Source: Elusimicrobiota bacterium (GTDB lineage: Bacteria > Elusimicrobiota > Elusimicrobia > FEN-1173). Taken from it: a stretch of DNA of 39,470 bases. This document shows, in pieces, positions 10,590-39,211 of the stretch (position 1 is its first letter; the number at the start of each line of letters is the position of its first letter). The stretch lies in NCBI GenBank assembly GCA_016788905.1, contig JAEURZ010000025.1, forward strand, positions 1 to 39,470, in the 5' to 3' direction. The position numbers were made by a program, and so were the translations under genes. The notes under the pieces were generated by a model. It was not told the DNA's origin, did not search any database, and was given only the letters and a program-made list of their open reading frames with translations.

Positions 10590-11741
10590 TTATTTGCTGT
10601 CGGGTGGGGAGGAGGCGAGTCTTTTTTCTGTCGGCCGCGAAATCTGTTCCCCGTAAATTTTAGCGAAGGCAAGCACACTCGCCACTGTCAGGGGCCCGAC
10701 CAAGAGGCCAATCGGACCGTAGGCCTGGAGCCCTCCCAGAGTCCCAAAAAAGAGAAAGACCACAGGCAGTTTCGCTTTTTCCCCAATAATGTATGGGCGG
10801 AGGAAATTGTCGACCATGCTCACGACAAGTCCGCCCCAAAGGAGAATTCCAAGACCTTGCACGGTCCCTCCTTTGAGAAACAAAAAAATGCCCACGGGTA
10901 ACCAAATGGCGGCGGCGCCCACAAAGGGAATGAGGGCCAAAAACGCAGTGGCAAAACCCAAGACAACGGAAAATCGAACTCCCGCCACGGCGAACCCAAT
11001 TCCCGCCAACAGTCCTTGGACCGAAGCGGTGACAAACATGCCACGGACAACCGCCGTCAGCGTTTCGTTTAACCGGGCCATGATGTGGGCCTTGTAGGAG
11101 GATTCCATGGGGATGAGTGCCGTCACCCCTTGGGCCAAGTTCGCCCCATCCCGAAAGATAAAGAAAAGAGTAAAGATCATCACGACCGCTTGGAAAATAA
11201 ATACGAAGACGTTTTTGAGAACAGCGGCCCCAGCGGAGGATACTTCTTTCCCAATGCCTTCAATGGTACGGAGAAGGGTGTCCCGCGGTTTCACCCCAGC
11301 TTCTTGGAGTAAGTCCTGGGAGCGTACCCATAGGTTTTTTAAGGGGGCGGGAAGACGTTCTTGAATGGCGACGTCGGGGTTGAGGCGGACTTCCCTCACC
11401 TGTTCCTGGGCCCAGGGGTAGATGGCCGCGGCTTGTTTCCCCAGCAGACCGATAAAAAAAACAGCGGGAACGATAACGATTAAAAATAAGGTGGCGACGC
11501 TTGTTCCCGCCGCCAGGTTCGGCCGCCCACGGCTCCAACGGAGAAATCGGGAATGGATGGGATAAAACACGAGGGCCAGCGTGATGGCCACCAATATCCC
11601 CGCGAGAAAAGGAGCCAAAATACGAAGCATTTGGTAGAGGAAGAACCCGAACGCCGCGAAAAAAAAGATGCGAAAGAGAAGCGGGCGGCTTTCGCTTCGC
11701 CGCTCCGGAATTTCGGTAGACGTCACTGGGGGTCCCTCCAT
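10590..11741 (-). CDS. AI-2E family membrane transporter
   Basis: 383 residues of the PerM/YdiK/TqsA family. Hydrophobic segments lie near 23-42, 44-62, 82-102, 170-196, 240-262, 266-292, 296-315 and 340-365, the usual eight. The family signature DNFLRPYIIG is present in the C-terminal half, followed by a Gly-rich GGLQAYGPIGLLVGP stretch. Members export small molecules, including autoinducer-2 in E. coli, or exchange sodium and protons; the substrate here is unknown. GGAG lies eight bases before the ATG. The start overlaps the end of ispG by 19 bases. The association with ispG is likely simple operon packing. Confidence 0.9.
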   Translation of the reverse strand: MEGPPVTSTEIPERRSESRPLLFRIFFFAAFGFFLYQMLRILAPFLAGILVAITLALVFYPIHSRFLRWSRGRPNLAAGTSVATLFLIVIVPAVFFIGLLGKQAAAIYPWAQEQVREVRLNPDVAIQERLPAPLKNLWVRSQDLLQEAGVKPRDTLLRTIEGIGKEVSSAGAAVLKNVFVFIFQAVVMIFTLFFIFRDGANLAQGVTALIPMESSYKAHIMARLNETLTAVVRGMFVTASVQGLLAGIGFAVAGVRFSVVLGFATAFLALIPFVGAAAIWLPVGIFLFLKGGTVQGLGILLWGGLVVSMVDNFLRPYIIGEKAKLPVVFLFFGTLGGLQAYGPIGLLVGPLTVASVLAFAKIYGEQISRPTEKRLASSPPDSK

Positions 11742-13738
11742 TTGCCGTGCTCCTTAATTAATGAAACCAACCGTTCGTCGGCGGCTTTTGCCGGGAGGCC
11801 TTTCTCCACGCAATCTTTTCCCACATAGAGATTTATTTTACCCGGACCGCCGCCAACATAACCAAAATCCGCATCGGCCATTTCGCCTGGACCGTTCACA
11901 ATGCACCCCATAATGGCAATTTTTACATTAAGGAGGTGGGCCGTTCTTTTTTTTATGCGGTCGGTGGTGCTTTGCAAATCGAACAGCGTTCGCCCGCAGG
12001 AAGGGCAGGAGACAAACTCCGCTTTGGTGACTCGGGCGCCCGCGCCCTGTAAAATATTGGCGAGGAGTTCCAGGTTCCGATCCAGTCCCAGGTCCGTGGT
12101 CAGGCTAAGGCTGTCCCCGATTCCGTCAGCCAAAAGACCGCCGGCGAGTGTGGAGGCCGAGAGAAGAAACGCCTCTTCATCCGGATCGGCCGGGGCCACG
12201 ATGTGGAGGGGGAATCCCGCTTCTCTGACCCATGGTTGGGCGACAAGGAAGCGCGCGTGATGCAGAAGTCTCGACACGTGGGTGTCCTCAAGTGCCAACA
12301 CCAGGTCCAGGCCGTGAGACATGGCCGACCGGGTCGCGTTCAAGAGGGGGTCCACGTCCCGGGAAAAAAGCCACAGGGGTTTCCCAGCTCTCGCCACCAG
12401 TGGCGCGAGCTCCGCGGTTCGGTTCAGGGTGTTGGGGGGGAGAGCGATTCCGTCGGCGAGGGGCAACGCTTCTTTTAGTCCAACGCCATTTTCCAGGCGA
12501 ACCAAGAAAGCAAGCCTGGAGGTTTCAAAACGAAGCAGGCCGCGAAATTTATCCAAAAGGGAGATATCTTCCATTGTTCGAACGGGCCATTCAATAATTT
12601 CTGGGGGAACACCCTGACCCGATTTGAGGCGCTGTTCGAGAATCGCCATCAAGGCGGTGGCGTTGGCTTGGGTGGGGTCTAACCGGGTCACGGCCCTCGG
12701 GGGATGGGTTGCGCCCAAGGCAATCGGACCCACGCGAACTTCGCGGGCGGTTCGGCGGGTGTAGTGAAAGGGATTTTCCACGTGGGAGAGACCGTCTGGA
12801 GGCGGTGTTGAAAGATAGGTGGTGGGAGGGCGGTTGTTGTAGGGGGTGGCCAGGCGGCGTGCCACAGGGAGTTCTGTTTCCGGTTCTTCCGTGAGGGACA
12901 CGCGAAGGGTATCCCCGATACCGTCTTCCAACAGACTTCCGATTCCCACGGCGGACTTGATGCGGCCATCTTCGCCGTCCCCCGCTTCAGTGACGCCGAG
13001 GTGAAAGGGATAATCCATGTTTTCGCTATCCATTCGCGCGGCCAGAAGACGGTAGGCGGCGATCATGACTTTAGGATTAGAGGCTTTCATGGAGAGGATG
13101 ATGTCATGAAAATTATTCGTCCGACAGATGCGAACAAATTCAAGGGCGCTTTCCACCATCCCTTCGGGAGAATCCCCGAACCGGTTCAAGATGCGGTCGG
13201 AGAGGGACCCGTGGTTGGTGCCGATCCGAAGGGCGCGCCCCAGCCGTTTCAGTTTTACAACCAGCGGAGTAAATCGTTCTTCAATGCGGGCGATTTCTTC
13301 CTTGTATTGGGCGTCTGAATATTCGCGAATTTTAAAGGCTTTGGAATCTGAAAAGTTGCCCGGGTTAATACGAACTTTTTCCACGTGTTCAGCCGCTTCC
13401 ATGGCGGCTTCCGGTCGAAAATGGATGTCGGCCACCAGTGGGGTGCGGAACCCTTTGGATCGAAGCGCCGTGGCGATGTTTTTTAAATTCTTAGCGTCCA
13501 CTTCCGTTGGGGCGGTCATTCGGACAATTTCACACCCCGTTTGGATGAGCCGGATGGCTTGGGCCACGGTCTCTTCGGTGTCTTGGGTGCGGGTCGTGGT
13601 CATGGATTGGAGGCGAAGGGGATTCTCTCCGCCCACCCCCACGTCGCCCACCATCACCACCCGGGTCTTGCGCCTTCGATAAGCGAAGAGGTCAGGGGAA
13701 TAGGTGAGATTCTGTCTGTCGGTTGGGACGGAAGGCAT
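11723..13738 (-). CDS. ispG: 4-hydroxy-3-methylbut-2-enyl diphosphate synthase, long form
   Basis: 671 residues, nearly twice the ~370 of the E. coli enzyme. It reduces MEcPP to HMBPP in the MEP isoprenoid pathway using a [4Fe-4S] cluster. The N-terminal TIM barrel (about 20-290) has PLRLQSMTTT and LVADIHF. The C-terminal domain has the cluster ligands Cys578 and Cys581 (CPSCGR), Cys612 and Glu619 (MGCIVNGPGE). Between them sits a ~270-residue insertion as in plant, Chlamydia, Bacteroidetes and other long IspG proteins, where it is structural. No Shine-Dalgarno sequence precedes the ATG; a TATAAT ends seven bases before it, so the mRNA may be leaderless. It heads a run with the permease, SpoU and NamZ genes. 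Confidence 0.95.
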   Translation of the reverse strand: MPSVPTDRQNLTYSPDLFAYRRRKTRVVMVGDVGVGGENPLRLQSMTTTRTQDTEETVAQAIRLIQTGCEIVRMTAPTEVDAKNLKNIATALRSKGFRTPLVADIHFRPEAAMEAAEHVEKVRINPGNFSDSKAFKIREYSDAQYKEEIARIEERFTPLVVKLKRLGRALRIGTNHGSLSDRILNRFGDSPEGMVESALEFVRICRTNNFHDIILSMKASNPKVMIAAYRLLAARMDSENMDYPFHLGVTEAGDGEDGRIKSAVGIGSLLEDGIGDTLRVSLTEEPETELPVARRLATPYNNRPPTTYLSTPPPDGLSHVENPFHYTRRTAREVRVGPIALGATHPPRAVTRLDPTQANATALMAILEQRLKSGQGVPPEIIEWPVRTMEDISLLDKFRGLLRFETSRLAFLVRLENGVGLKEALPLADGIALPPNTLNRTAELAPLVARAGKPLWLFSRDVDPLLNATRSAMSHGLDLVLALEDTHVSRLLHHARFLVAQPWVREAGFPLHIVAPADPDEEAFLLSASTLAGGLLADGIGDSLSLTTDLGLDRNLELLANILQGAGARVTKAEFVSCPSCGRTLFDLQSTTDRIKKRTAHLLNVKIAIMGCIVNGPGEMADADFGYVGGGPGKINLYVGKDCVEKGLPAKAADERLVSLIKEHGKWRDPQ

Positions 13739-24107: not shown

Positions 24108-25478
24108 ATGCCGAGCTTAAAATCAAAGATGGAATATCTCGAAGCTGTCTATCATCGTTACCACAAAGGCGACAAGGATGAGAAGAAAACGATCCTCAAT
24201 GAATTCTGCCAGGTCTGTAAATACAACCGCAAATACGCGATTCGAAAACTCAACGGGGATCCCCCAGCAAAAGGTCACATCCCCCGGCGACGACAGAGAG
24301 GGTTCCTTTATAGCCAGGAATGTCTCCACATGGCGGAAATCATCTGGAAAGCCTCCGGCCACTTGTGTGGACAACGATTGAAGGAAGCCTTGCCCCTGTG
24401 GCTCCCGGCACTTAAAAAACGCCTCTCGGTCTCTACTCAGGTGGAACAAGAACTTTTGGGGATCAGTGCGCGGCAACTTGATGAACGCTTGCGCGTGAAA
24501 AAGAGGACTCTCAAAAAACGGATCTACTGCACCACCCGCCCAGGCTCCCTCTTAAAAAGCATGATCCCCATACGCACCTCGAACTGGGATATCCGTCAGC
24601 CCGGGTTTATAGAAATAGATCTCGTCGCTCATTGCGGAAATTCAAATGAGGGACAATTCATATTCAGCCTTGACACCACCGACATTCAGACCGGCTGGAC
24701 CGAACGGCGCGCCGTGATGGGCAAAGGACAAACCGGCGTCTTGGACAAAATGCGTGAGATCCGCGACGCCTTGCCTTTCCGTCTACGTGGCATCGATTCA
24801 GACAATGGCGATGAATTCATCAACTGGCAACTCCTTCGCTATTGTCAGGCCCAACGCCCCGGCATCGATTTCACCCGCGGCCGTGCCTATCGGAAAAACG
24901 ACAACGCCTACATTGAACAGAAAAACTGGACCCACGTCCGGCAGATCTTTGGCTGGAACCGCTATGAAACTGAAGACGCCTTGGCACTGATGAACGACCT
25001 TTACTCCAATGAGCTCCGTACGTTTCAGAACTTTTTTCAACCGTCCATGAAGCTCAAAGAGAAAAAGCATGTGGGCTCAAAAACAGTTCGGACCTATGAC
25101 ACCCCGAAGACGCCCTTCCAACGCGTCTTGGATTCCGGAAAATATCATCGCGCCAAAATGAAGGAACTCCGGCTCCTCCAGGCCTCCCTGGATCCGTTTG
25201 AACTCTCACAATCCATTGACCGGAAAATCGCCCGTTTGATCCCTCTTGCTTCCCAACGCGTTTCGCTAAACAAAGAGGGCCTTACCGCAAGCCCCCTCAC
25301 TCGTATGGGCTCACAATCATCCCAAAACCAACCGCCAAAGACGCGGTCCCCTTGGAGAAACTTCAGCTTTAGTCGAAAGAATGCACGTCTTAGAAAAAGA
25401 CTCCGCCAGATCGAAACGAAGGCTCGAATTAAAAACCAAATCCAACCCAAAGGAGGTTCTGTCTCGGTTACCTTTTAG
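24108..25478 (+). CDS. Transposase with integrase (rve) catalytic core
   Basis: 456 residues. A strong GAGGAGGGG site precedes the ATG. The N-terminal ~150 residues are a helix-turn-helix region (CQVCKYNRKYAIRKLNG) and linker. The DDE core (about 165-300) has Asp171 (FIEIDLVAHCG), Asp232 (GIDSDNGDEF) and Glu270 (NDNAYIEQKN), all intact, with the frequent family pattern TGWTERRAVMGKGQ between. The C-terminal ~60 residues are basic and possibly not needed for catalysis. The gene is uninterrupted, so the element could still be active. The family is one of the rve-type chromosomal transposases; I cannot name the IS family with certainty. Confidence 0.92.
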   Translation: MPSLKSKMEYLEAVYHRYHKGDKDEKKTILNEFCQVCKYNRKYAIRKLNGDPPAKGHIPRRRQRGFLYSQECLHMAEIIWKASGHLCGQRLKEALPLWLPALKKRLSVSTQVEQELLGISARQLDERLRVKKRTLKKRIYCTTRPGSLLKSMIPIRTSNWDIRQPGFIEIDLVAHCGNSNEGQFIFSLDTTDIQTGWTERRAVMGKGQTGVLDKMREIRDALPFRLRGIDSDNGDEFINWQLLRYCQAQRPGIDFTRGRAYRKNDNAYIEQKNWTHVRQIFGWNRYETEDALALMNDLYSNELRTFQNFFQPSMKLKEKKHVGSKTVRTYDTPKTPFQRVLDSGKYHRAKMKELRLLQASLDPFELSQSIDRKIARLIPLASQRVSLNKEGLTASPLTRMGSQSSQNQPPKTRSPWRNFSFSRKNARLRKRLRQIETKARIKNQIQPKGGSVSVTF

Positions 25479-33943: not shown

Positions 33944-34318
33944 ATGACGCACGCTGTCGGAGTGGTTCTTGTAGTGGAAGATGAACCAGCGATTCAGGAT
34001 GTGATGCGGGAAGAGTTGGAATCCCAAGGGCTTGAGGTCCTCGCGGTATCTTCGGGAGAAGAGTCCCTGATGCTTCTTGAAACGCGTTCGGTGGATCTTA
34101 TCATCATGGATATGCGGATGCCAGGAATGAACGGAGTGGAAACCTCCATCGCCATTAAGCACCGGTTTCCAGATCTTCCCATCATTTTGTGTACGGTGTG
34201 TGAGCAGTGGCGTGTTCGACAATTTATCGGTCGTGAGATCCAAGCCTACCTTCCCAAACCCTTCACCCTTCGCCAACTCAACGAAACCGTTCAAACCGCC
34301 CTGGCGGGATTGCGTTAA
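33944..34318 (+). CDS. Stand-alone receiver-domain response regulator
   Basis: 124 residues, receiver only. Glu12/Asp13, phospho-acceptor Asp56 (IIMDMRMPGMNG), Thr84 and Lys105 (YLPKPF) are all in place, so it should be phosphorylated. No output domain, so it may act as a CheY/Spo0F-type relay. The ATG at 33944 has only a weak ribosome-binding site. Its stop (34316-34318) touches the tandem repeats that precede the giant gene. Confidence 0.88.
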   Translation: MTHAVGVVLVVEDEPAIQDVMREELESQGLEVLAVSSGEESLMLLETRSVDLIIMDMRMPGMNGVETSIAIKHRFPDLPIILCTVCEQWRVRQFIGREIQAYLPKPFTLRQLNETVQTALAGLR

Positions 34319-34362
34319 TTTACAACTTATTTACAACTTCTTAATCTCACCTTAATCTCCGT
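34319..34362 (+). promoter_or_regulatory. Four tandem 11-base repeats, likely response-regulator operator
   Basis: Four units in exact 11-base register: TTTACAACTTA (34319), TTTACAACTTC (34330), TTAATCTCACC (34341), TTAATCTCCGT (34352). The first two match at 10 of 11 positions and the last two share their first eight bases. Direct repeats with an 11-base period are the usual site for OmpR/PhoB-family dimers. The array ends four bases before a TATACT -10. The regulator is not identified. Confidence 0.6.
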
Positions 34363-34366
34363 GCCG

Positions 34367-34372
34367 TATACT
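34367..34372 (+). promoter_or_regulatory. -10 hexamer of the giant gene
   Basis: TATACT ends nine bases before the ATG at 34382, directly after the repeat array. No -35 hexamer is visible; the array takes that place, as expected for an activator-dependent promoter. It places the GTG at 34361 upstream of the transcript. Confidence 0.45.
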
Positions 34373-34381
34373 TCTCATGGT

Positions 34382-37300
34382 ATGACGGTCCCGTTCACAC
34401 ATAAGGTTGTAAGCGTTGTCGTGGGGGCCCTGTTTTTTGGGGTCAACAGTCTTTTCGCTTATTCCTCAGAATCCAATTTCTGGGCGGAACGGGGCAAGCA
34501 GGCTCGAAGAAAATCATCGATCCCCCTGCGTTTGGCGGCTCTTCCCGTCCAAGGGGGGGGCGCCAAAATTAGTGGGACTTTCCCGCCCTTCCCTTCTTCC
34601 AATGGATCATTCGCTTTGTCCTCCCCAGTTTACAACAGCATTCCCCGTTCCTTTTTTCAGGACAGAAGGTCTCTCTTCGGTGCGCTCTCCAACGAACATG
34701 GGACCATTCGAAAAATAACTTTGGGTCGTCGCTCCGTTCACCCCCATCCCGTGGTGGTGTATTTACAGGATGTTCATCAGAATGCCGAGGCTCAAAGAAA
34801 AATCAGTTCGGTGGTGCAAAAGATTGTGTCTGAAGGAAAGGCGACTGTGGTGGGGTTGGAAGGAACGTGGGGGGAGATCCATCTCCGGCCTTTGCAAACG
34901 TTTCCCGATTCTCAGGCGGTGCACCAAGCGGCCGACGCGCTCTTAACAGCGAACCATATTTCCGGGCCCATTCACGGCCTTCTCACCGCGGAAACCCCGC
35001 TCCCCCTCGTCAAAGGGATCGATGATCCCACCCATTACGGCGCGAACGTCAAGGCCTACCGGGATTCGGCCCCGCACGCGGATCCCTACCATAAAAGAAT
35101 TCAAAAGATGGCGGACCAACTGGAAAATCAAAAACGGATTGTTTTTTCTAAAAGATTGAAGGAGTTTGATCGGGATATCGAAGATTATCGTCAAAACAAG
35201 GCTTCTCTCGGGGACTATGTTCGGACCCTCCTTTCCCACGCCCATGAAGTGCCCCCTTCACTCCGTTTGTTTTCCCAAGTGGCCGAAATCGAAAAAGCGT
35301 TGGATTTTGGTCAAGTGGAACGCGAAAGAGCAGCGCTTATCGATCAACTTGTCAAACAAATTTCCCCCCAACACGAAGAGGAGCTGATGGCCCGTACCGT
35401 GGCCTATCGGGCGGGGCAATTGCTTTACGCCGACTATTACAGCCTGCTTAAACACTTGTGCGAGGAAACCGGGGTGGATCTTTCGTCGTATCCATCCATG
35501 GACCGTTACATCCGGTACGTTCTTTTAGCGGGTCAAATTGAAGCGGAGTCCTTGTTGCACGAAACGAAACAATTGGAAGATCAAGTGTATCGGTCTTTGG
35601 CGGAAACACCGGAAGAGCGCATCATTTTGGACCGTTCTCGGCGAATTCATTTAACCCGAAAACTTGTGGAATTCAGCCTAACGCCCGAAGAATGGGCCAC
35701 CTATCAATCGTGGCCTGAAACGAAAGGCGCTTTCGATTTTGACGGAGAGGGGGCGGCCTGGGATCTCGGATCCTTCGAAAAATTTTATGAAGAGGCTCAA
35801 GTCCGTGATTCTCTCCTGGCGACCAACCTCCTTCACCAATTGAAAAACGATGCCGATGTGGGCCTGCTCGTCGCCGGAGGGTTTCACGCCGCGGGTGTGA
35901 CGGCCGCGCTAACAGCCGCGGGCGTGACAGTGATTTCCTTTGTTCCTCGAATGACATCCTTGGAGACGACTCAAGGGTCAAACGCGCTCTCTGTTTTTAC
36001 CCAAGAAAAAACGCCCCTGGACCAATTGTTCGACGGCGAAAAACTTTTTTTGGCTCCCGCTCCCGTAAGTCGACCCGTTCTTAACGGCCTTCTTCCCGCG
36101 ATGGTTGTGGTTCTATCCCTAGCGGCCTCCGGCCTTCTCACTGGACCGGAGGCGAACCTTCTCTACTCCAGCCTCAACGGAATAGGCGCACTGGTGGCGT
36201 TAAAAATGATCCAGGACCACGTGTCTTTCGACATCGCTTTTCCGACGGGATCCGCCTCTTTTTCTGTTGATTTAGGTTCGAACGAAATCTCTTCCGTGGA
36301 TTCAAGTCCAGGGGCGCGCCATGGGTTCAAGTGGTTTTACAAAAAATATGTTCCAGAAATTTTAAAAAGAGCAAAAGAAGTGAGGCAAAGTCCTTTTTGG
36401 GCAATTTTTCGTTATGGGTCCATTTCCCTATCCTCCCTTCGTCTTGCGGTGGCTTTGTATCGTATGGAAAGCTCGGGGTCGAGTGGTGAGCGTTTTGGCG
36501 TGAACTTATCCGGGGTAGGCATGCACCTTGTGGGGGTTGGGTTGAAAAAAAGTCAATTGGAATTTCTTCGAAAACGACCGAGCGAACCGGCGTCTCAAGT
36601 TCAACGGGCGGAATGGGCTCGTCAAATTAGCGAAGCGCTCCGCAATGATAAGTTAAGAGCTTCCCTTTCACGGGTGGGCCTTGTGGAACCTGTCAGAAGG
36701 TTAATCGCTCTTCTCCGAATGCCGAGGCCGGTGGTTAGGGTGTCGGGTGTTGAAATCCCCATCCAATTCAATTTGATTTCGGGTTCCCCAGAGGACTTAC
36801 CCCATGGAATGCCCAGAGCTTTTGGTTCAGGTCATGAGGGACGAGGGATCCGTCCGGCTTCTTATTCCATAGGCTTTTTTGCGAACGATCTTGCGGCGCT
36901 TCTTCATGAAGGTATGGAAATAATAGTGCGAGACGATCAATTTTCCGAGCGTTTCGAAGCGAACGCACACTCCTACGCTTTTTTAAGTGAGATCCTTGCC
37001 AACGCTGACTCCGATGGGGATATCGTTCCCAAAAGGGCTATTCAAGAATTGGGTCAAAAAAGCCTAAATGAACTGAATGAATTCCTTAATAAAAGCCTTT
37101 TTGATTTAATCGAGGTTCGGGCACGCTTTAAGGAAAATAATCCGATGCGTGCGCGACTCAGCGAAATCAACGGGTTGTTAAATAATTATGCTTTACGCCT
37201 GCGGGACGAGCGCGTCCAAAACCAGGCAACCCTTTTTTACAGTCTGTCTGCCGAAATCGAAAGGGTTTCTGCGATGGGGGCCTTAAGTGAAGTTCAACCA

Positions 37301-39211
37301 CATATTCAAAAGATGGAAAGGGCCCTGTATCATCTTCAGAGAGAGAGAGGTCCCAAGCCGTTCCTCCGATCCTATCTAAACGAGATCCTGAAACGGCAAA
37401 AACAATATGCCGAACAATACACGGACGCCCAACGGGAACACGCTCGGGTTTATTATCTGTTCCTTGAAACTCTAGACCAACTGATGACGAAAAGGGAATG
37501 GATGTCTCTTTTTCAGGGAATTAATCGTTTGAAATTGAGCCGATCTACTTTTAAGGGAGAAATTTTAATAAATGAACAAGTTCTTCTCTTTGGCCTTTGG
37601 GATCGGATGAGGGATGTCTTGGCCCCGGTATTGATGGAGGGGGATTGGGATGTGGCCGATCGCAAAGCCGCTGAACTGGAAAAATTCGGTTTGGACGTTA
37701 TTCAAAGTCATGGAATTATTAACCAATATTTTGAAACCGTTCTTTTGGATTTTTTAGCGGTTTATCGATCCCAGCGGGATTTGGCTCACCGGAATTCTCT
37801 GAGTGAGGAACAGCATAGGGAAAGCCTTATTTTCCTCCGTGAAACATCTTTTCGTTCCGGGTCGTCAGGTGAAGAAGGTCCTTCTCAAGTATTGGGTCGT
37901 TTTGCGAAGGGCATGGGGGGGTGGGTCGAATGGGAAATCAATTCGCTCTCACACAGTATCGCTTATTTAAACAAAAGACTCCCTGTCCCGATTCGATTGT
38001 TGTTCGTTCAATCCTATCGATATGAATGGAAAAAAAGGCATTCCTCTGTGCTGCAAAGAATTCTTCTCAAATATCCCCATCTCACCGCATCGGTGAACGA
38101 TGTTTCAACTGTTTTTTCTGAATATGTTTCGGAAAGGGGATCCATTGAGGAAGCGAAGAGAAGTTTAATGGCGATGGGCCTCAAGCCTTTTGAAGTGGAT
38201 TTGTATCTTTTGGATATGAGCGAGTTAATGCCTGGCTCCCTGCCAAAAATAACTAAACATAGAAATCTACAACGGGGAGAAAGTTTATTAGCACTTCTTG
38301 TTCCCCTTGCGGTTCTGTCTTTAATTGGAACCCCTTTTGTCTTTGGAATTGATGCAGGGTTTTTAATCTTTGAGCGAGCGAGTCTTTCATGGCTTCCTTT
38401 CGTTGGAGGGGGACTCTTTGGAATGGTGATAATTGTCGGTGCCGTTTTAGGGATAAAAAAATCACGAGAGAAAAATGGTTCTTTGAATTCATTGGAAATA
38501 AACACCGCAAAAGGACTTGTGGCGCTTCTTCAAGAAACACCAACGACTTTAGGCGTTGATCAAAGGAAACTTGTCGAGTCCGCAATCCGGCTCAGTTCAA
38601 AAAATCCGTTTATTGAATTCTTGAGCGACTCTTTTCAGGAAAAAAACATTCTCTTAACTGTTGAGCAGGCCAGGAGCCAGTTGCTAAGAGCTTTGGAGGG
38701 ATCACCAGTGATCAATCCAACCGATTTAAAGAATAAAGCAGAAGGAGAACGGCCCCTCACCATATTTTATTTGGATGGAGCGGGTGTTCCTCAAAACGGC
38801 AATCTTAGGTCTGTTTTGGACCCTTATCTGCTTAAAAACAGAGCCGAGATCCTTGTCGTCCCCATTGACGAGAGAGCCCAAAAAGCGGCCAAGCGGTTAC
38901 AGAGTAGTCCTGGAATCCACGTGTTCTCTGATTTAGAACGTAAGGGGGAAGGGGATAGGACGTCTGGCGATAGATATGGCCTGGCGAATATGGAAGATCA
39001 TTTGCGATCAGAGGGAATAAAAACAGAATCATTTACGGGATGTCTCCTCGTTTTCCCGAAAGGATTCATGATTAATGTCGAGGGAGTGAAAACCAATCTT
39101 TTCAAAAACGCTCTGGTGATTTTGATGGGCGCTCTCTTCTCTGTGGTTATCCCCAGATCCCATCTGGAACAGCTTGATCGCTTGGCTCGCGCTGTAGCGT
39201 CCTCTGCCTGA
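34382..39211 (+). CDS. Giant exported or membrane protein with a TIKI/ChaN-like N-terminal region
   Basis: 1,609 residues from ATG 34382; GTG 34361 is open but lies before the likely -10. A signal or anchor segment (HKVVSVVVGALFFGVNSLFA) is followed by a ~60-residue low-complexity part. Residues ~120-540 show a QDVHQN (H132), GLEGTWG (E160), and GGFHAAG (H502) pattern, like the Glu/His motifs of the EreA/ChaN/TIKI superfamily. A hydrophobic segment lies at ~565-585. The ~590-1295 region is mainly helical, with HEGME (H842, E843, E846) and ANAHSYA (E859, H863) as a possible metal site. Two hydrophobic segments lie near 1300-1360 and one at ~1573-1592. No full-length family is recognised; similar giant proteins are seen in Omnitrophota/Elusimicrobiota-type genomes, from memory. 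Confidence 0.7.
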   Translation: MTVPFTHKVVSVVVGALFFGVNSLFAYSSESNFWAERGKQARRKSSIPLRLAALPVQGGGAKISGTFPPFPSSNGSFALSSPVYNSIPRSFFQDRRSLFGALSNEHGTIRKITLGRRSVHPHPVVVYLQDVHQNAEAQRKISSVVQKIVSEGKATVVGLEGTWGEIHLRPLQTFPDSQAVHQAADALLTANHISGPIHGLLTAETPLPLVKGIDDPTHYGANVKAYRDSAPHADPYHKRIQKMADQLENQKRIVFSKRLKEFDRDIEDYRQNKASLGDYVRTLLSHAHEVPPSLRLFSQVAEIEKALDFGQVERERAALIDQLVKQISPQHEEELMARTVAYRAGQLLYADYYSLLKHLCEETGVDLSSYPSMDRYIRYVLLAGQIEAESLLHETKQLEDQVYRSLAETPEERIILDRSRRIHLTRKLVEFSLTPEEWATYQSWPETKGAFDFDGEGAAWDLGSFEKFYEEAQVRDSLLATNLLHQLKNDADVGLLVAGGFHAAGVTAALTAAGVTVISFVPRMTSLETTQGSNALSVFTQEKTPLDQLFDGEKLFLAPAPVSRPVLNGLLPAMVVVLSLAASGLLTGPEANLLYSSLNGIGALVALKMIQDHVSFDIAFPTGSASFSVDLGSNEISSVDSSPGARHGFKWFYKKYVPEILKRAKEVRQSPFWAIFRYGSISLSSLRLAVALYRMESSGSSGERFGVNLSGVGMHLVGVGLKKSQLEFLRKRPSEPASQVQRAEWARQISEALRNDKLRASLSRVGLVEPVRRLIALLRMPRPVVRVSGVEIPIQFNLISGSPEDLPHGMPRAFGSGHEGRGIRPASYSIGFFANDLAALLHEGMEIIVRDDQFSERFEANAHSYAFLSEILANADSDGDIVPKRAIQELGQKSLNELNEFLNKSLFDLIEVRARFKENNPMRARLSEINGLLNNYALRLRDERVQNQATLFYSLSAEIERVSAMGALSEVQPHIQKMERALYHLQRERGPKPFLRSYLNEILKRQKQYAEQYTDAQREHARVYYLFLETLDQLMTKREWMSLFQGINRLKLSRSTFKGEILINEQVLLFGLWDRMRDVLAPVLMEGDWDVADRKAAELEKFGLDVIQSHGIINQYFETVLLDFLAVYRSQRDLAHRNSLSEEQHRESLIFLRETSFRSGSSGEEGPSQVLGRFAKGMGGWVEWEINSLSHSIAYLNKRLPVPIRLLFVQSYRYEWKKRHSSVLQRILLKYPHLTASVNDVSTVFSEYVSERGSIEEAKRSLMAMGLKPFEVDLYLLDMSELMPGSLPKITKHRNLQRGESLLALLVPLAVLSLIGTPFVFGIDAGFLIFERASLSWLPFVGGGLFGMVIIVGAVLGIKKSREKNGSLNSLEINTAKGLVALLQETPTTLGVDQRKLVESAIRLSSKNPFIEFLSDSFQEKNILLTVEQARSQLLRALEGSPVINPTDLKNKAEGERPLTIFYLDGAGVPQNGNLRSVLDPYLLKNRAEILVVPIDERAQKAAKRLQSSPGIHVFSDLERKGEGDRTSGDRYGLANMEDHLRSEGIKTESFTGCLLVFPKGFMINVEGVKTNLFKNALVILMGALFSVVIPRSHLEQLDRLARAVASSA

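What the first reader, a model, noticed from the sequence alone, without database searches (positions are those of the whole stretch)
34382..39211. Giant unrecognised protein with several possible functional centres
Seen: a ~1,609-residue open frame with a signal-type N-terminus, an early H/E motif set (QDVHQN, GLEG, GGFH), a central HEGME...EANAH cluster that could bind metal, and terminal hydrophobic segments. Known: the EreA/ChaN/TIKI superfamily uses Glu and His motifs of this sort. Inference: a large envelope-associated enzyme or toxin-like factor with two catalytic-looking regions, not a fragment of a known giant adhesin.
Basis: partly seen in the sequence, partly recalled or inferred. 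Interest (0 to 1): 0.75.

Follow-up and report, generated by a model that had tools for sequence, protein, structure and literature searches.

The report
Giant exported proteins, one conserved head
The 1,609-residue protein is one of about 25 very large, apparently exported proteins in the same genome that share an enzyme-like head of the TIKI/ChaN kind with a never-changing active-site set, followed by a body that differs in almost every copy; this gives a first handle on the unexplained giant proteins of Elusimicrobia and Omnitrophota.

Summary
The open frame is real (ATG 34382, stop ending 39211). It belongs to a family of about 25 giants (about 500-7,288 aa) in the same 2.5-Mb Elusimicrobia-type genome; related giants occur in 62 of 295 genomes of the phylum, and in contigs named Elusimicrobia and Omnitrophota. 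All share a signal-peptide-like N-terminus and a ~460-aa head. In 106-108 relatives D130, H132, Q138, E160, R475, G499, G500 and H502 never vary. The second centre (HEGME...H863) is conserved in one remote giant; its function is unknown. The bodies are almost all different: among 42 giants, 859 of 861 pairs share the head, 9 share body sequence. Bodies often contain intact-looking housekeeping-type enzymes. Nearly all end in alanine (36/37, and 36/40 in a further set). Best reading: exported giants with a constant hydrolase-like head, a variable payload and a fixed C-terminus, perhaps for cell-cell interaction; substrate and target unknown. Giants in these phyla were known; the papers I could search do not describe a common head.

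The parts
34382..39211 (+). giant protein, 1609 aa (ATG start; GTG at 34361 also possible)
   Evidence: one of about 25 paralogues in the genome
34382..34465 (+). signal-peptide-like N-terminus (residues 1-28, ...SLFA-YSS), followed by the conserved ExxFWxxR motif (residues 30-37)
   Evidence: charge before the hydrophobic stretch exceeds charge after it in both phyla; no signal-peptide predictor was available
34694..35956 (+). head: TIKI/ChaN-superfamily domain (about residues 105-525) with a long helical insert (about 216-455)
34769..34777 (+). D130-V-H132, candidate catalytic Asp/His (counterpart of Glu-x-His in RRSP)
   Evidence: invariant in 106 of 106 aligned relatives
34859..34861 (+). 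E160, candidate catalytic Glu, 28 residues after H132
   Evidence: invariant; same spacing as H85-E113 in Bcr135 and H3902-E3930 in RRSP (PMC6254334)
35804..35806 (+). R475 of the R(D/N)xxMaxNL motif
   Evidence: invariant
35876..35887 (+). G499-G-F-H502, candidate second catalytic His
   Evidence: G499, G500 and H502 invariant in 108 of 108; aligned with ChaN GxxH
36086..36142 (+). hydrophobic stretch after the head (residues 569-587)
36641..37051 (+). body domain with HEGME(842-846)...EANAH(859-863), possible metal site
   Evidence: one remote homologue at residue 3466 of a 9162-aa giant (G129:C28) that also carries the head
38285..38455 (+). hydrophobic hairpin (residues 1302-1358), also seen before the C-terminal tail in many paralogues
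38609..39208 (+). C-terminal tail (last 200 residues) ending in the conserved terminal Ala

Best explanation
The protein is one member of an expanded family of giant exported proteins with a constant head and a variable body. Shown: a common N-terminal head of the TIKI/ChaN superfamily with an invariant Asp-His / Glu / Arg / Gly-Gly-x-His set; bodies that are mostly unrelated to each other; a nearly fixed C-terminal residue. Inferred: the signal peptide takes the chain across the inner membrane; the head is an active hydrolase (peptidase or esterase, as in Tiki, RRSP and Ere) working outside the cytoplasm; the hydrophobic hairpin and the C-terminal tail hold or sort the chain in the envelope; the variable body is payload that differs between paralogues, most plausibly for contact with other cells. 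In the window's copy the payload is a helical region with an HEGxE...H domain of unknown activity.
For: Paralogues. Distribution: 18 of 41 close relatives, 62 of 295 genomes and 31 of 90 genera of the phylum, named Elusimicrobia and Omnitrophota contigs. Invariance of D130, H132, Q138, E160, R475, G499, G500, H502 in both phyla. Superfamily: with the RRSP/Ere mechanism and structure list in PMC6254334. Constant head, variable body: 859 vs 9 of 861 pairs. Export: charge pattern and AxA-like sites. Body enzymes with mostly intact motifs. C-terminus: 36/37 end in Ala, 36/40 in a further set, against 1 of 28 ordinary window genes; in five hits in other genomes the tail model lies at the end of a giant whose length matches one that carries the head.
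Against: Many bodies hold nucleotide-using, cytoplasm-type enzymes (SNF2, PGK, AAA, EI-like), which have no obvious work outside the cytoplasm. No signal-peptide predictor, expression data or known target. Foldseek E-values are weak (0.12 at best in the PDB), the N-terminal half of the profile match alone is not significant (P 0.032, controls down to 0.025), and the first catalytic Glu of RRSP is an Asp here. The head could bind a ligand (ChaN binds haem) and not catalyse. The tail is only weakly alike between paralogues and not significantly alike between lineages.
Confidence: 0.5

Rival explanations
1. The head binds a ligand (haem or another cofactor) at the cell surface, like ChaN, and does not catalyse; the giants are uptake or adhesion proteins.
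For: ChaN (Cofac_haem_bdg) is the closest Pfam family and the best profile match; the hydrophobic stretches suggest membrane attachment.
Against: The invariant set matches the catalytic residues of RRSP and Ere in order and in His-Glu spacing. Haem binding was not tested. An adhesin would not obviously carry Nudix, phosphatase or helicase domains.
Confidence: 0.2
2. The N-terminal hydrophobic segment is an anchor and the bodies face the cytoplasm, so the giants are membrane-tethered metabolic or regulatory assemblies.
For: Body enzymes are cytoplasm-type with mostly intact nucleotide sites. Elusimicrobia heads carry several Arg/Lys just after the hydrophobic stretch. The window protein has a second hydrophobic stretch at 569-587 that could turn the chain back.
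Against: Charge before the segment exceeds charge after it (+2.9 vs +1.3 in Elusimicrobia, +3.2 vs -1.1 in Omnitrophota), and AxA-like sites end it in 69 of 84 and 12 of 15. In several giants no hydrophobic stretch separates head from enzyme (L014, L016, L124).
Confidence: 0.17
3. The giants are self-processing polyproteins: the head is a peptidase that cuts the chain after export and releases the payload domains.
For: TIKI-superfamily peptidases are known, including RRSP, an endopeptidase domain carried inside a giant MARTX toxin. Head always N-terminal, body modular, fixed C-terminal residue.
Against: No shared cleavage motif was looked for or seen in the bodies; no proteome data; head-only ORFs (525 and 653 aa) occur in Omnitrophota, although a frameshift may explain at least one of them.
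Confidence: 0.13

Closest known systems
ChaN / Cofac_haem_bdg (PF04187), TIKI superfamily
   Same: order of motifs (x-[D/E]-x-H ... VGxE ... (R/W)NxxM ... GxxH); profile match P 1.9e-4
   Different: much shorter (269-381 aa ORFs), no long helical insert, stand-alone; score of the window protein is below the Pfam cut-off
Erythromycin-esterase family (Bcr135 3B55/2RAD, EreA/EreB)
   Same: top Foldseek PDB hits; His to Glu spacing of 28 residues (H85-E113 and H132-E160)
   Different: the first acidic residue is Asp here; no Pfam Erythro_esteras match; Foldseek E only 0.12
RRSP domain of MARTX toxins (TIKI-family endopeptidase)
   Same: 2His/2Glu-type set with the same spacing; an extra helical lobe; sits inside a giant exported protein
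   Different: here the domain is always N-terminal behind a signal peptide, its first Glu is Asp, and no RTX or autoprocessing parts were found
Giant ORFs of Omnitrophota, Elusimicrobiota and other PVC-group bacteria (PMC10066038, PMC11573180, PMC12057145)
   Same: same phyla, size, membrane segments, signal peptides, few annotated domains
   Different: those reports describe adhesion and carbohydrate domains and poor conservation; the passages read do not describe a common TIKI-like head, housekeeping-type bodies or a fixed C-terminal residue
Polymorphic toxins (PMC3482391)
   Same: constant trafficking part plus a very variable other part
   Different: here the head and last residue are constant and the middle varies; no immunity genes or toxin domains were identified

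Membership tests
TIKI/ChaN/Ere superfamily | core strands each followed by a motif residue: x-x-H, Glu, GxxH | tested here: met
   model strands 124-130, 156-159, 493-499 directly before H132, E160, H502
TIKI/ChaN/Ere superfamily | conserved His-Glu pair at the set spacing and a second His | tested here: met
   H132, E160, H502 invariant; spacing 28 as in Bcr135 and RRSP
TIKI/ChaN/Ere superfamily, 2His/2Glu enzymes | first acidic residue is Glu (E-x-H) | tested here: not met
   Asp in 106 of 106; a conservative change, so superfamily membership is not excluded but identity with the 2His/2Glu set is
TIKI/ChaN/Ere superfamily | significant profile similarity to a known family | tested here: met
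   hhalign P 1.9e-4 to ChaN, controls 0.13 or worse; the C-terminal half carries the signal
TIKI/ChaN/Ere superfamily | fold match | tested here: inconclusive
   right families are near the top of the lists, but best E 0.12 (PDB) and 0.025 (viral)
ChaN (PF04187) proper | score over the curated Pfam cut-off | tested here: not met
   19.7 vs 27.7 bits; 23.1 in the genome search
ChaN (PF04187) proper | haem binding | not testable with these tools
   needs protein
TIKI peptidase / Ere esterase | hydrolytic activity | not testable with these tools
   needs protein
Giant PVC-group proteins | very long ORF with signal peptide in Elusimicrobia/Omnitrophota | tested here: met
Polymorphic toxin | recognised toxin domain or immunity gene | tested here: inconclusive
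   no toxin family in the Pfam scans of the genome's paralogues; immunity genes were not systematically sought

The most novel reading that the evidence does not exclude
A previously undescribed export system of giant polyproteins: a TIKI-like peptidase head matures or releases variable payloads that include working housekeeping-type enzymes, and the fixed C-terminal residue is read by a dedicated sorting or processing machine; the payloads act in or on partner cells.
Probability: 0.13. Interest if true: 0.92.

Novelty: new variant of a known kind. Interest (0 to 1): 0.7.

Why it matters
Elusimicrobia and Omnitrophota encode more huge proteins than most bacteria, and published surveys call them poorly conserved and poorly characterised (PMC10066038, PMC11573180). 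An invariant enzyme-like head of about 460 residues, in dozens of them per genome, turns 'unknown giants' into a testable question: express the head, find what it cuts or binds, and see what happens when H132, E160 or H502 is replaced. That apparently exported giants carry intact-looking Nudix, phosphatase, helicase-like and glycolytic domains is itself unexplained.

Tried and rejected
Second catalytic centre as a common feature: a search for HExxE...H..A in 478 ORFs gave only the window protein and one doubtful other, a DNA pattern only the window, a two-sequence profile nothing further; it stays a domain with one homologue. Known families for the whole protein: nothing over cut-off in Pfam or NCBIfam and no hit in PADLOC or PHROGs; no match among plasmid records or viral contigs; no tandem repeats. 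PDB by sequence: no meaningful hit. TraB and Ere Pfam families hardly occur in the phylum, so ChaN was the reference. C-terminal tail: AlphaFold model poor (pLDDT 64) and Foldseek uninformative; tails of the three lineages are not significantly alike. A first hhalign against ChaN used wrong reading frames and was discarded. C-terminal count: I left out artefact-prone ORFs and also L028 and L063; with these two (Val and Ala) the first count is 37 of 39.

Full report
What is there. The frame 34361-39211 (+) is open for 1616 codons; from ATG 34382 the protein has 1609 residues and it ends inside the contig. A search of the same genome (2.5 Mb, 99.85% complete) gives 30 matches in about 25 long ORFs of about 500 to 7288 residues, several in tandem. 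Matches cover residues 1 to about 600 only, with a few to about 670; beyond this the paralogues are different.

Who carries it. 18 of 41 close relatives and 62 of 295 genomes, 31 of 90 genera, of the phylum carry the head. In named GTDB contigs the best 80 places are Elusimicrobia, Candidatus Obscuribacterium magneticum and Candidatus Omnitrophota. No relatives were found in the viral contigs or plasmid records.

The head. 21 paralogues were aligned. Across 106-108 sequences from both phyla, D130, H132, Q138, E160, R475, G499, G500 and H502 never change. Pfam gives a weak ChaN hit (E 9.5e-4, 19.7 bits against a cut-off of 27.7). A profile of the head against stand-alone ChaN proteins from the same phylum gives P 1.9e-4 with score 40, while ten column shuffles and the reversed profile give 0.13 or worse and scores up to 20; the aligned stretch sets R(D/N)xxM...GGFH on ChaN WNExM...GxxH. 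The N-terminal half alone is not significant (P 0.032; shuffles down to 0.025) though it falls in the expected register, QDVH on GExHD and VGLEG on VGFEM. The AlphaFold2 model is good in the core (mean pLDDT 79, most core blocks above 90) and puts strands 124-130, 156-159 and 493-499 directly before H132, E160 and H502. The two best Foldseek PDB hits are the Ere-like BcR135 entries (3b55, 2rad), with the TIKI-superfamily effector HopBA1 at rank 9; a TraB protein is second in the viral library; all E-values are weak. PMC6254334 names Bcr135, HopBA1 and ChaN as TIKI-superfamily relatives of RRSP and gives the catalytic set Glu3900, His3902, Glu3930, His4030; the His-Glu spacing of 28 is that of H85-E113 in Bcr135 and of H132-E160 here. 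The first Glu is an invariant Asp here. I conclude that the head is a divergent TIKI/ChaN-superfamily domain with an active-site-like set; catalysis itself is inferred.

Export. The N-terminus has a charged start, a hydrophobic stretch and usually an AxA-like end; the mean net charge before the stretch is +2.9 (Elusimicrobia) and +3.2 (Omnitrophota) against +1.3 and -1.1 after it. This points to export, but no signal-peptide predictor was available.

The body. Among 42 giants, 859 of 861 pairs match in the head, 9 in the body and 14 in the last 420 residues (E < 1e-5). Bodies with Pfam hits contain Nudix, calcineurin-like phosphatase, HD, PEP-utilising enzyme, ACT, AAA_5, SNF2 helicase, DUF488, CofD and glycosyltransferase domains in the window's genome and PGK, PFK, GPI, transaldolase, PGM/PMM, nucleotidyl transferase, aminotransferase, radical SAM, B12-binding and protein kinase domains elsewhere. 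The motifs I looked at are mostly intact: complete Nudix box, DxH/GD/GNHE of the phosphatase, H...HD, SNF2 Walker A and DEsQ, EI-like His and Arg; the AAA_5 Walker A deviates (GK-E for GK-T/S), and the PGK lacks one of its nucleotide-site lysines (judged from established knowledge of PGK). Why exported proteins would carry such enzymes is unexplained.

The second centre. Residues 754-890 with HEGME...EANAH have one homologue, at residue 3466 of a 9162-residue giant of a distant genus that also has the head (E 4e-7 in that genome; H842, E843, E846, H863 conserved). It is therefore a real, rare domain; metal binding or catalysis is a guess.

The C-terminus. Of 37 complete Elusimicrobia giants 36 end in Ala (Ala makes up 8.6% of their residues); two further ORFs that I had set aside end in Ala and Val. 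In 40 giants from further genomes 36 end in Ala (a few of these ends may be read in a wrong frame, and some of the genomes also gave loci to the first set), against 1 of 28 ordinary genes of the window. Six Omnitrophota giants all end in Leu. A leave-one-out profile scores the true tail above all internal windows of the same protein in most cases, for the window protein 8.1 against 0.7 bits. In three other genomes the tail profile hits five ORF ends, each with the length of a giant that carries the head. A pair of hydrophobic stretches 250-440 residues before the end recurs. Tails of the different lineages are not significantly alike, so the terminal residue, not a common tail fold, is what is shared.

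Known and new. Huge proteins in Omnitrophota and Elusimicrobiota are known and described as poorly conserved and of unknown role, with adhesion or carbohydrate domains in some (PMC10066038; PMC11573180; PMC12057145). The passages I could read do not mention a common TIKI-like head. Preprints are not held in the library, so I cannot exclude that it was noted there. I therefore call it a new variant of a known kind.

Verdict. The larger result is the family: constant enzyme-like head, variable body, nearly fixed last residue.

Noticed in passing
L010:1643-7117, L011:11592-17303, L016:1377-6740, L015:966-12944, L018:1124-15874, L124:7800-16868: Apparently exported giants carry housekeeping-type enzyme domains with mostly intact active-site motifs (Nudix, phosphatase, HD, SNF2, EI-like, PGK).
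   Followed up: partly
L009-L028, L057-L134, L197-L236: Giants with the head end almost always in Ala (Elusimicrobia and more distant classes of the phylum) or in Leu, mostly Ser-Leu (six named Omnitrophota).
   Followed up: partly
L124:1574-6058, L133:4337-7669, L118:15546-17441: Other long Omnitrophota ORFs next to the giants have a different signal-peptide N-terminus followed by a YPxx...LAxPS-like motif; perhaps a second class of giants with its own head.
   Followed up: no
G000:C1:87000-112000, G000:C3:55600-71400, G000:C17:63900-73500: Giant genes lie in tandem arrays of two or three.
   Followed up: partly
L118:7782-12890: A head-only ORF of 525 aa is followed at once by a 1177-aa ORF; either a frameshift or stop in the assembly or a split giant.
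   Followed up: no
window 11723-13738 (-): Long IspG/GcpE (671 aa) matched in two stretches, so with an insert.
   Followed up: no
window 33944-34318 (+): Single response-regulator receiver domain directly upstream of the giant gene; may be chance.
   Followed up: no
window 24108-25478 (+): 456-aa ORF without any Pfam match at E 0.001.
   Followed up: no
Stand-alone ChaN proteins are frequent in families that lack the giants and mostly absent from those that have them, some f16 genomes excepted.
   Followed up: no
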